Positions 42,986 through 46,445 of a stretch of 64,000 nt of DNA are shown here, piece after piece. Within the stretch, counting starts at the first letter, position 1, and every line of letters starts with the position of its first letter. The notes under the pieces are model-generated. The model did no database searches and had not been told where the DNA came from. It was given only the letters and a program-made list of their open reading frames with translations. A program made the position numbers and the translations under genes. The stretch is taken from assembly GCA_022829145.1 (NCBI GenBank), contig CM040758.1:18177075-18241074 (forward strand). Direction: 5' to 3'. Source of the stretch: Albula goreensis. Taxonomy: Eukaryota > Chordata > Actinopteri > Albuliformes > Albulidae.

Positions 42986-45900
42986 ATGAAGACCATTCTC
43001 AGCAACCAGACAGTCGACATCCCCGACAACGGTATGGATTGCATGAATTCATCCATAACGTTAAGTTGACTGGGTAAATCACACCCCAGTTAGATGTTCA
43101 TTTGCATTTTCCCTGGAATATGCTTTTGAGATTTTTGATGTAATACGTTCAAGTGACCAAGTCAGCCCATCTTATCACTGTCTTGTTTTTATGCAGTCGA
43201 TGTGACGTTGAAAGGGCGAACTGTGATCGTCAAAGGACCCCGGGGTACCCTCCGCAGGGAGTTCAACCACATTAACCTGGAGCTCAGCCTCTTGGGAAAG
43301 AAACAGAAGAAGGTATTATTTTAACCAAATAGCTTCTAATTGTCAGTACGTATCAAATCAGTTTGATATTTAGGTTGCTGTAACATTGTCTTTGCTCGAA
43401 GGCTGACTGCTTTGGTACTGTTCTCTTTAGCTTCGTGTGGACAAATGGTGGGGTAACCGAAAGGAGCTGGCCACCGTCCGCACCATCTGCAGCCATGTCC
43501 AGAACATGATCAAGGGGGTTACCATGGTGAGTGGGGCCTCTGAGCACTGTTCTCATGCAGTGCTGCTGCTAGTCACATGATCCCTCGGACAAAAGTCTTG
43601 CCCTCTGCCTAAGCTGCCAGTTAAATGAATTATCCAGAGGGCTGTAGTCTGCATTCCAACTTTGTTGGTTTGCATATTGCCATACTGATTGCCTGTGCTC
43701 TCTCTAGGGTTTCCGCTACAAGATGCGATCTGTGTACGCCCATTTCCCCATTAACGTGGTGATGCAGGAGAGTGGCACACTGGTGGAGATCAGGAACTTC
43801 TTGGGAGAGAAGTACATCCGCAGGGTCCGCATGAGGCCAGGTCAGTGTGTGAAATGTGGGAGATAGTTCTCTGGTTGAGACAGATGGTCTTGGCCCTTAT
43901 GACCGTCGGGGTCTTTCCATAGAAGTGGTAGTATCAAAAATGGTAACAAGTTTTTCTAGTATCATTTGTGGATGTTAGATATATTTCAAGATAAGAGATG
44001 GTGACTTTTTACAAATACATAGCCCTCTGCAGTTTAATACAGAATGTCTCAACCCTAGCTGTTTCTCGCTTATTACAGGTGTTTCCTGCACCGTGTCTGC
44101 TGCCCAGAAAGACGAGCTGGTTCTGGAGGGCAACGACATTGAGCTGGTGTCCAACTCAGGTGAGTTTCCAGGACCAGGCACCTCTAGAGGTGAAATGGAG
44201 ATGTGGAAAGATTCACCACCCCTCTGATTCCTACCATTTCAGATCACAAGTTCAGCAGTGTTACTCATTCATAAAACTTACCATATCTGGCGTGCTGCCT
44301 CAAAGGCTGAGAGAGCAGCTAATGCTTAAATTGCATTACCAGGTAAACTCAGGTTTCTTTGACCTGCAAGCTGTCCATGTTATAATTTTGAGTTTTTTTT
44401 GCCCCAAATATTTTACCAACATTGCTGTGGGTATAGAGGGAAGTGATGTCAACAAAGTTTCTCACAGTATAAAATTCCTTCATAATTTGTCTGCAGACTC
44501 AACTGCCTCATGCCTTAGCATTTTCACCCATTGCCGTAATGAGTTTAATGCTGTGGTTCTATGTACAAGTGTGTCATTGCTCACAGCTGCTCACTAAATG
44601 ATGAGAGCCCGTACTAGACGAATCTTCTTGCCTGTTTTCTCCCTTGTGAATTCTATTGCTTATGAAATTATCTCTCTGTATAAGTTGCTGTATTCTGTTT
44701 GGTGGTGGGGGAAAGGGAATTCTTCGGCTTGGTTCTGTCTATTCACACAAAATGAGTATAAATGTGTCAGCCTGAGTGACTGGGTGTTCATTCAGATGCA
44801 GGCAGCCAGTGTGTTGATTTACCATGGGATACTGCTAGATGCCTGAACTGCAATTAACACCCTGTAGAAGATGACTGTTTTTATGAAAGGCTGTGTGGCT
44901 TCCATTTAAGTGGTCATACTTGTATTGTGTGAATAGGACCTTTTCAGGGGGCTGCAGTCTTTCCTGGACTTAAATCTTCTGAGCTGAGTGCTGACTATTG
45001 AATCATCTTTTCCTGGGCTCTTGCTACAGAAATGAATGATTTCTAATGTCCTGACATAGTAACACCACATCCTGTTCTTTCATGAACACACATTAGGTTT
45101 TGTGAAAGCAAAACATGCTCCCTATGGGTTTTTACAAAAACCAGCATATACAGGAGATTACTAATGTGTGAAAAGATTGTATAGATGTCCAATTGATATC
45201 CTTGATAACGTGACTTGCAGTATCACAAGCCATTCTAATAACTACTGATGGTTGCTCATCCACTCCTATGAGTGAACAGTAGAAGTGGCATGTTTGTGTT
45301 AGAATGATACATTCCCTTGTGGATGCCCCTGGTAGTTCTAATCAGAGCTAACCAGAGGCACCATACTTCTAAAAACATGTACTGTGTCCCACCCCCTGCC
45401 CCTTTGTACCAGTGCCCTCCACCCCACATCCAGTTTCTGTCTCTCTAGTTTGAGCCCAGATGCCTCTGTGCCTGTGAAATCATGCTTTACTGTATCTGGA
45501 GTGTTGTTGCTGTCTCTCCCTGCTTTAACCTGTGCCCTGTGATTGTGTTCAGTCTGAATCCTCTCTGCATGCCGCTCCTCACTGCCCCAGCCTCTCTCTT
45601 CCAGCCGCTCTGATCCAGCAGGCAACCACAGTCAAAAATAAGGATATCAGAAAGTTCTTGGACGGTATTTACGTGTCCGAGAAGGGAACCGTAGTGGAGC
45701 CGGAACAATAAGCGGTTTAGAGGTTAGAATGTGCCCTGAAGCCAAAAAGGCGTGTTGGTGCTTTTTTTCGTGTTTTCTTTTACGTGTTTTGTTTGTCAGT
45801 ATTGTTTGACGTCGGTCCTTGTCCATAAGCTGTTTTAGTCAAACCGATTGACTCAGGAATATCATTGAAATCAAAGTTGTCTAGATGCAATCAAAGGAAG

Positions 45901-46445
45901 GTGGTTCTAGTTTTGTTTCACATGACCAGAAATGGAGGTAGCCTTTTTTTTTTGGGGGATTTGAATACTGTGATAGGGTAATTCTCACTGCTGAAGAGTG
46001 AGTACAGTGTAGATGTGCATGTTTCACTCTGTATAAATGCATGCGTTAACCAAAGCTTGAGTTTGTTTTTAATAAGGTAGTATATGTATTTGAGAGATCC
46101 ATGCATGTCAACTAATAGTTGGAGTCAGTCACTGGATCAGCCTTGTTAGTAAGGTGATTTAGATGATAAAAATGAAATGTTAAGCCCAGCTTCTATACAA
46201 AATTTAGACATTTGAATGCAATATTCTTGATTAGAAAACTTAAGGGGGATTCCTAAATACATACAGAAGCCCTGACCACCTTGCGGTTGCACCATGCCTT
46301 TTTGAGTGTTTCACACCCCTTTTTCCTCTTTGCAGCTGCCCTGATCCAGCAAGCCACAACAGTGAAGAAGAAGGATATCCGGAAGTTCCTGGATGGCATC
46401 TATGTCAGTGAGAAGACCACTGTGGTGGAACAGCAGGAGGCTTAA
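42986..46445 (+). CDS. rpl9: 60S ribosomal protein L9 (uL6), with two alternative last exons
   Basis: Large-subunit ribosomal protein uL6, which sits near the sarcin-ricin loop and the stalk base. Shared coding exons: 42986-43031, 43197-43312, 43431-43526, 43708-43840, 44079-44159. They encode [20 protein letters not shown] through [12 protein letters not shown] with the family's conserved blocks ([38 protein letters not shown]). The last exon exists twice: A at 45605-45711 and B at 46336-46445. Both join in phase 1 after the same donor. With A the protein has 192 residues, with B 193; human has 192. A stops before B, so the two tails are mutually exclusive. The intron before A (1.4 kb) is by far the longest between rpl9 coding exons. 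B is followed 19 nt after its stop by a consensus AATAAA; A is not. Confidence 0.95.
45605..45711 (+). CDS. rpl9: rpl9 alternative terminal exon A (proximal)
   Basis: Good acceptor (pyrimidine tract and TTCCAG before 45605), then an open frame in phase 1: [20 protein letters not shown], continuing [15 protein letters not shown] and TAA at 45709-45711. It keeps VKNKD and SEKGTV, as in human RPL9. I see no consensus AATAAA or ATTAAA between its stop and exon B; only weaker variants (TATAAA near 46030, AATAAG near 46070, GATAAA near 46165). A weak donor, AGAG|GTTAGA after 45722, could also let it act as an internal exon. Confidence 0.8.
46336..46445 (+). CDS. rpl9: rpl9 alternative terminal exon B (distal)
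   Basis: Acceptor CTCTTTGCAG before 46336, same phase as A. Reads [20 protein letters not shown], continuing [16 protein letters not shown] and TAA at 46443-46445. It differs from A by K for N, T for G, and a different, one-residue longer tail. A consensus poly(A) signal follows at once. By layout alone it is the normal last exon, although A is closer to human in its two diagnostic residues. Confidence 0.85.

What the first reader, a model, noticed from the sequence alone, without database searches (positions are those of the whole stretch)
45605..46445. rpl9 has two intact, mutually exclusive last coding exons
The sequence shows two copies of the last rpl9 exon 625 bp apart, each with a proper acceptor, the same phase and its own stop. 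Over the first 32 shared codons I count 18 synonymous differences (including a TCC/AGT serine switch) but only two replacements (N/K and G/T), after which the tails diverge (VEPEQ versus VEQQEA). Near-saturated silent sites with almost no amino-acid change mean that both copies were translated for a long time. uL6 is an invariant core ribosomal protein, so two selectable tails would give built-in ribosome heterogeneity near the sarcin-ricin loop. I know of no description of this for vertebrate rpl9.
Basis: partly seen in the sequence, partly recalled or inferred. Interest (0 to 1): 0.9.

Follow-up and report, generated by a model that had tools for sequence, protein, structure and literature searches.

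The report
Ancient paired last exons of rpl9
A fish gene for a core ribosome protein carries two interchangeable last exons, and matching versions of both turn up in bony fishes, sharks and rays, so fishes may have long been able to build two slightly different ribosomes from one gene.

Summary
Window rpl9 (uL6), beside lipoyl synthase and an RFC1-like gene, has two intact in-phase last exons, A 45605-45711 and B 46336-46445. Over 32 codons they differ by 18 synonymous and 2 replacement codons; silent sites are saturated (pS 0.89), replacement sites are not (pN 0.07). Of 56 named jawed-fish rows, sorted by residue 169, 26 are A type (N, one H) and 27 B type (K), 2 of them with both in series, A first; 5 fit neither. 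Independently of residue 169, A tails have 15 residues in 22 of 23 and B tails 16 in 24 of 27. B types occur in teleosts, sturgeon, paddlefish, skates, elephant shark and an electric ray whose isoforms X1 and X2 are B and A. The duplication probably predates the bony/cartilaginous split. Best reading: alternative last exons giving uL6-A (192 aa) and uL6-B (193 aa) with different 3' UTRs. That both proteins enter ribosomes and differ in action is inferred; no RNA or peptide data were available. A UTR switch is the main rival. My searches found no published description.

The parts
42278..42304 (+). probable non-coding first exon of rpl9 with a pyrimidine-rich (TOP-like) start; donor GAG|GTAAGG after 42304; the 5' end is inferred
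   Evidence: sequence read directly; transcription start not mapped
42986..43031 (+). rpl9 coding exon 1 (ATG)
   Evidence: splicing and translation; homology to uL6 chains
43197..43312 (+). rpl9 coding exon 2
43431..43526 (+). rpl9 coding exon 3
43708..43840 (+). rpl9 coding exon 4
44079..44159 (+). rpl9 coding exon 5, the shared donor for both last exons (CAG|GTGAGT)
45605..45711 (+). last exon A (N169, G185, tail VEPEQ; 192-aa protein)
   Evidence: same type as the five uL6 chains aligned and as 26 of 56 named jawed-fish rows
45665..45670 (+). cryptic donor inside exon A (GACG|GTATTT); use of it would join part of A in frame to B
   Evidence: the Bagarius P0002 and Dissostichus P0121 models look like this join
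45998..46003 (+). possible donor behind exon A (AGA|GTGAGT), 286 bases after the stop; a weaker one is at 46149 (TTA|GTAAGG)
   Evidence: use not shown; splicing from here to B would leave the A stop upstream of a junction
46032..46037 (+). TATAAA, candidate poly(A) signal for exon A, followed by a T/GT-rich stretch
   Evidence: no AATAAA or ATTAAA lies between A and B; use not shown
46336..46445 (+). last exon B (K169, T185, tail VEQQEA; 193-aa protein)
   Evidence: same type as 27 of 56 named jawed-fish rows
46464..46469 (+). AATAAA poly(A) signal after exon B

Best explanation
rpl9 in jawed fishes carries an ancient tandem duplication of its last coding exon, used as two alternative terminal exons. 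The donor at 44159 is spliced either to exon A, whose transcript then ends at a weaker poly(A) site (candidate TATAAA at 46032), or past it to exon B, whose transcript ends at the canonical AATAAA at 46464. The results are uL6-A (N169, 192 aa) and uL6-B (K169, 193 aa), identical over the first 157 residues, with different 3' UTRs. One uL6 sits in each large subunit (established knowledge), so the choice would set the uL6 version next to the elongation-factor site. SHOWN by sequence: two intact in-phase last exons, strong purifying selection over the pair, and proteins of both types in bony and cartilaginous fishes. INFERRED: expression of both in this fish, the choice mechanism, the single origin of the pair, and a functional protein difference.
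For: pS 0.89 against pN 0.07. Acceptors with 81% (A) and 90% (B) pyrimidine at -5 to -25, against 71-76% for the four other coding-exon acceptors, and the same phase. Among 56 named jawed-fish rows (39 names at genus level, one a tribe) sorted by residue 169, 26 are A and 27 B; two of these (Bagarius, Dissostichus) hold both motifs in series, A before B, and 7 more B rows hold a further ALIQQATT copy in series ahead of B. By eye, Coregonus P0035 reads an A-like exon in a shifted frame before B, and Tachysurus P0062 and Perca P0113 read a B-like exon in a shifted frame. Narcine isoform X1 is B and X2 is A. A mark independent of the sorting residue agrees: A tails have 15 residues in 22 of 23 complete ones, B tails 16 in 24 of 27. 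Over 32 residues window A equals carp A and window B equals Coregonus B, though window A and B differ by 2.
Against: No transcript, junction read or peptide was seen. The sorting by residue 169 is circular as proof that this residue is type-specific; only the window (exon order), Narcine (isoform names) and the two series models give the types without it. Distances overlap: A-A 0-3, B-B 0-6, A-B within a lineage 2-7 of 32 residues, so the groups rest on one column plus tail length. Contigs under 2 kb with fish-type tails that I recognised by eye in the lists (P0021, P0024, P0034, P0038, P0127, P0138; 617-1917 bases) are all A; none is fish B, though clustering at 90% identity makes such counts weak. 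Exon A has no canonical poly(A) signal and has possible donors behind its stop. The best PDB match to a fish B protein is an A-type chain.
Confidence: 0.58

Rival explanations
1. The switch matters for the mRNA, not the protein: the two last exons attach different 3' UTRs (about 340 against 40 bases if the candidate signals are used) and the coding parts are merely kept functional. Ribosomes with either tail would be equivalent.
For: Only two replacements in 32 codons; different 3' ends and poly(A) signals; for RPS24 the authors of PMC8563012 raise the same possibility (passages).
Against: In Narcine, the window and the two series models the upstream or X2 copy has N169 and the other K169, and tail length follows residue 169 across rows; equivalent tails would be expected to drift or swap.
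Confidence: 0.28
2. One exon does nearly all the work (probably A) and the other is a rarely used or tissue-restricted form.
For: The five PDB uL6 chains aligned and the short fish-type contigs recognised are A type; B proteins vary more among lineages than A (0-6 against 0-3).
Against: B is intact and recurs in 27 of 56 named fish rows, including Callorhinchus K4GH99, whose accession style suggests a cDNA (recalled, not checked).
Confidence: 0.2
3. The cartilaginous-fish and bony-fish pairs are separate duplications that converged on N/K.
For: Residue 169 varies (N, K, R, D) among invertebrate and unnamed rows and is K in hagfish, so K can arise again; G185 does not separate the types in the cartilaginous rows.
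Against: The same exon, the same N/K split in Narcine, and a 16-residue B tail in Narcine and Callorhinchus as in bony fishes; but the two skates have 15.
Confidence: 0.22
4. Exon A also serves unproductive splicing: a donor behind its stop (45998 or 46149) joins it to B, so that the stop lies upstream of a junction and the mRNA is decayed, which would tune uL6 supply.
For: AGA|GTGAGT at 45998 lies 286 bases and TTA|GTAAGG at 46149 lies 437 bases after the A stop.
Against: It does not explain why A is kept as an exact uL6 tail, nor the A-type proteins in databases.
Confidence: 0.07
5. Assembly or haplotype artefact, or a recent local duplication.
For: None beyond the fact that only one assembly was read here.
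Against: Saturated silent sites and series models in other fishes.
Confidence: 0.01
6. A longer hybrid protein: part of A joined in frame to B through the cryptic donor after 45664.
For: The join is in frame in the window, and the Bagarius and Dissostichus gene models have this form.
Against: It would insert 20 residues into a packed core protein; such models may come from automatic prediction facing two last exons in series (inference).
Confidence: 0.03

Closest known systems
Tandem duplicated exon substitution events (human catalogue of 236 events in 214 genes, PMC9741552; passages read)
   Same: Homologous tandem exons, one or other used, ancient, C-terminal regions enriched, more than 90% with orthologues in bony fish.
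   Different: The catalogue is built on human genes; the word ribosomal does not occur in its main text, nor rpl9 in its text. The tetrapod-named rpl9 rows I read show no K169 form, so a human-based list would miss this pair.
RPS24 (eS24) C-terminal alternative splicing (PMC8563012; passages read)
   Same: A core ribosomal protein whose C-terminus changes by splicing; [quoted passage not shown]
   Different: RPS24 uses exons of 3, 18 and 22 bases; here two complete homologous last exons recode 35-36 residues.
Ribosomal protein paralogues, e.g. Arabidopsis RPL9B/C/D (PMC8647923; passages read)
   Same: More than one uL6 version or gene in one genome.
   Different: Separate genes, and the review reads their phenotypes as a dosage effect; here one gene would make both.
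Alternative terminal exons with multiple poly(A) sites (PMC3228551; passages read)
   Same: Duplicated terminal exons that most probably go with multiple poly(A) sites.
   Different: No difference in kind; the gene and the depth of conservation are what is new.

Membership tests
Tandem duplicated exon substitution event | Homologous exons side by side in one gene | tested here: met
Tandem duplicated exon substitution event | Same phase, each able to replace the other | tested here: met
Tandem duplicated exon substitution event | Both isoforms found in transcripts or peptides | not testable with these tools
   no RNA or proteome data; only isoform names
Tandem duplicated exon substitution event | Conservation of the pair across distant species | tested here: met
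   both exons in one gene seen only in series models and Narcine isoform names, otherwise one type per row
Mutually exclusive exons in the strict sense | A cluster of internal exons | tested here: not met
   both are terminal exons with stops; definition in PMC3228551
Alternative last exons | Own acceptor and own stop | tested here: met
Alternative last exons | Own poly(A) site for each | tested here: inconclusive
   B has AATAAA 46464; A has only a TATAAA variant at 46032
Ribosomal protein isoforms giving ribosome heterogeneity | Both forms present in ribosomes | not testable with these tools
   no ribosome proteomics on hand; the best PDB match to a fish B protein is an A-type chain
uL6 (RPL9), genuine gene and not a retrocopy | Spliced gene in conserved neighbourhood | tested here: met
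   introns; lipoyl synthase on the other strand and RFC1 nearby; that human RPL9 has these neighbours is recalled

The most novel reading that the evidence does not exclude
Since the ancestor of jawed vertebrates, fishes have built two kinds of 60S subunit from one rpl9 gene by choosing between an N169 and a K169 uL6 tail at the elongation-factor site, with cell-type or stage control, and tetrapods later lost the K169 exon.
Probability: 0.32. Interest if true: 0.88.

Novelty: new variant of a known kind. Interest (0 to 1): 0.72.

Why it matters
Specialised ribosomes are debated partly because dosage and paralogue effects are hard to separate. Here one gene, one promoter and shared upstream exons would give two uL6 proteins that differ at few residues and, if the pair has one origin, have been kept apart since about the origin of jawed vertebrates. 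uL6 is part of the elongation-factor-binding site with the sarcin-ricin loop (PMC5331450, passages). Carp and loach rows carry the B type, so zebrafish probably does too (inference), which makes the question testable by editing single codons in a laboratory fish. Human-centred exon catalogues would not list it.

Tried and rejected
Recent duplication or artefact: rejected by saturated silent sites and series models in other fishes. Retrocopy: rejected for the window by introns and neighbours; for other species a second locus cannot be excluded row by row (carp is tetraploid, recalled). A known structured RNA in the region: no Rfam match at the gathering score in 40000-48500. G185T as the mark of the types: rejected, B has G in 8 of 27 (one search printed one R185, which is a misreading of the Oryzias row by my pattern and is T). 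K169 as a vertebrate novelty: rejected, K, R, N and D occur in invertebrate or unnamed rows. Of 211 rows, 40 have K alone at 169 by the pattern: 25 are named jawed fish, 15 are not: hagfish, invertebrate or unnamed rows, and four unnamed mammal-like rows (P0148, P0166, P0201, P0208) not counted as B. P0122 has a doubled segment and was not counted. Five named fish rows (P0042, P0073, P0092, P0094, P0113) fit neither pattern and stay unclassified. B in coelacanth, lungfish or tetrapods: no tetrapod-named row has K169, but the three protein searches list the best 120 of 1574, 1561 and 1288 hits and clusters hide members, so absence is not shown; a few tetrapod-named rows have other residues there (for example Lycaon P0099, D; Camelus P0114, S). 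Passages on uL6 in PMC5119991 and PMC10156603 and passages of PMC2447413 gave nothing useful. Other rpl9 loci in the window's own genome: not completed. Literature searches for a prior description listed no such paper; one search found none at all, and searches showed only the top 20, 15 and 40 of 21, 29 and 400; the library lacks most subscription papers, including a catfish 60S protein set that I recall. While checking this report I lowered the best reading from 0.62 to 0.58 and the novel case from 0.33 to 0.32, because sorting by residue 169 is circular as proof of its type-specificity and because possible donors behind exon A had been overlooked; the UTR rival rose from 0.25 to 0.28 and the separate-duplication rival from 0.20 to 0.22 for the same reason.

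Full report
WHAT IS THERE. The window holds an rpl9 gene on the + strand. Coding exons are 42986-43031, 43197-43312, 43431-43526, 43708-43840 and 44079-44159, followed by two candidate last exons, A 45605-45711 and B 46336-46445. Spliced with A the protein has 192 residues, with B 193; the A form matches uL6 chains of the PDB over its length. The neighbourhood is that expected for the genuine gene: the opposite strand upstream has a lipoyl synthase match (NCBIfam lipA), and downstream lie a BRCT domain and a stretch matching replication factor C subunit 1. That human RPL9 also lies near LIAS and RFC1 is recalled.

Over the first 32 codons there are 18 synonymous and 2 replacement codons. By NG86 over the same codons, pS is 0.89 (too high to correct) and pN 0.07, Fisher p about 6e-14. 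The acceptors are at least as pyrimidine-rich as the four other coding-exon acceptors (81% and 90% against 71-76%). The match is confined to the exon and the last bases of the acceptor, and the flanks do not align. This pairwise test shows selection over the pair as a whole; it does not tell which copy is the stricter.

THE PAIR LOOKS OLD. Three protein searches returned 211 distinct rows (best 120 of 1574, 1561 and 1288, counted). I picked the 56 rows named as jawed fishes (39 names at genus level, one of them a tribe) and sorted them by the residue before KDIRKFLD: 26 hold N or H (A type), 27 hold K (B type), 2 of these hold both in series with A first (Bagarius P0002, Dissostichus P0121), and 5 fit neither pattern. 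Some species appear in several rows. Because the sorting uses residue 169, an independent mark was counted: complete A tails have 15 residues in 22 of 23 (one 13), B tails 16 in 24 of 27 (two skates 15, Triplophysa 20); G185 in 23 of 23 A, T185 in 19 and G185 in 8 of 27 B. Seven more B rows carry a further ALIQQATT copy in series ahead of B; its type cannot be read because that part is alike in both. By eye, Coregonus P0035 reads an A-like exon in a shifted frame before B, and Tachysurus P0062 and Perca P0113 read a B-like exon in a shifted frame. B types occur in teleosts, Polyodon, Acipenser, the skates Leucoraja and Amblyraja, Callorhinchus and Narcine. For Narcine the two types are named isoform X1 (B) and X2 (A). 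Over 32 residues window A equals carp A and window B equals Coregonus B, while window A and B differ at 2 (the salmonid pair there is made of two genera). Distances overlap, however: A-A 0-3, B-B 0-6, A-B within a lineage 2-7, and only column 169 separates the types in all five lineages, three of which were typed by that very residue.

POLARITY. Many invertebrate or unnamed uL6 rows end in EKTTV with N, K, R or D at the variable position; hagfish have KKKD with EKATI, and lamprey NKD with EKTTV. So T at 185 looks like the older state and the G of A the newer one, while residue 169 cannot be polarised. No tetrapod-named row has K169, which fits a loss of B, but clustering at 90% identity hides members and absence was not tested in genomes.

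HOW IT MOST LIKELY WORKS. Exon A ends in a stop. No AATAAA or ATTAAA lies between A and B; TATAAA at 46032, followed by a T/GT-rich stretch, is the best candidate end for A, and B has AATAAA at 46464. The choice would be between early polyadenylation with A and skipping to B, which also exchanges a 3' UTR of about 340 bases for one of about 40. This mechanism is inferred. Two complications: possible donors behind the A stop (AGA|GTGAGT at 45998, TTA|GTAAGG at 46149) could join A to B and leave the stop upstream of a junction, and a cryptic donor after 45664 could join part of A in frame to B. uL6 belongs to the elongation-factor-binding site around the sarcin-ricin loop (PMC5331450, passages); in bacteria EF-G touches uL6 (PMC12008383, passages); during 60S maturation Yvh1 touches uL6 (PMC6579518, passages). 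Where residue 169 sits relative to rRNA was not examined.

AGAINST THE STRONG READING. No RNA or peptide evidence was available. Contigs under 2 kb with fish-type tails that I recognised by eye are all A (P0021, P0024, P0034, P0038, P0127, P0138). Isoform names such as X1 are not proof of transcripts. Callorhinchus K4GH99 may come from the full-length cDNA set of PMC3466250 (passages), but that link rests on accession style and was not checked. Other species' A and B could in single cases come from two loci. The 3'-UTR rival stays serious.

KNOWN OR NOT. Tandem duplicated exons that replace one another are a known, ancient class, enriched at the termini (PMC9741552, passages), and RPS24 shows that a core ribosomal protein can vary its C-terminus by regulated splicing (PMC8563012, passages). 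Searches for rpl9 or ribosomal protein L9 with alternative splicing, last exon, mutually exclusive, ribosome heterogeneity and duplicated-exon terms listed no paper describing this pair; apart from passages of PMC8647923, PMC9741552 and PMC3228551 only listings were seen for these, and the library is open-access only. I rate it a new variant of a known kind: homologous last-exon choice in a core ribosomal protein gene, found across jawed fishes and not seen in the tetrapod rows read.

Noticed in passing
window 45660-45673: Exon A contains GACG|GTATTT at the D177/G178 codons; splicing there joins A to B in frame. Bagarius P0002 and Dissostichus P0121 gene models look like this join. B has GGC at the matching glycine, so no such donor there.
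   Followed up: partly
window 45998 and 46149: Donor-like sites AGA|GTGAGT and TTA|GTAAGG behind the exon A stop, which could make a stop-before-junction transcript with B.
   Followed up: partly
window 36698-37153, 39686-40250 and 41847-41999 (minus strand): Pieces of a lipoyl synthase gene divergent from rpl9, with start codons about 1 kb apart; only the first piece was matched by a tool, the others by eye.
   Followed up: partly
window 52575-53689 (plus strand): Exons of an RFC1-like gene (BRCT domain; replication factor C subunit 1 match).
   Followed up: partly
P0144 (Apostichopus japonicus uL6-like isoform X2): A sea cucumber uL6 is also named as one of several isoforms; whether its isoforms differ in the last exon was not looked at.
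   Followed up: no
P0148, P0166, P0201, P0208 (unnamed contigs): uL6 with KKKDIREF and a mammal-like tail; perhaps a processed copy in some mammal.
   Followed up: no
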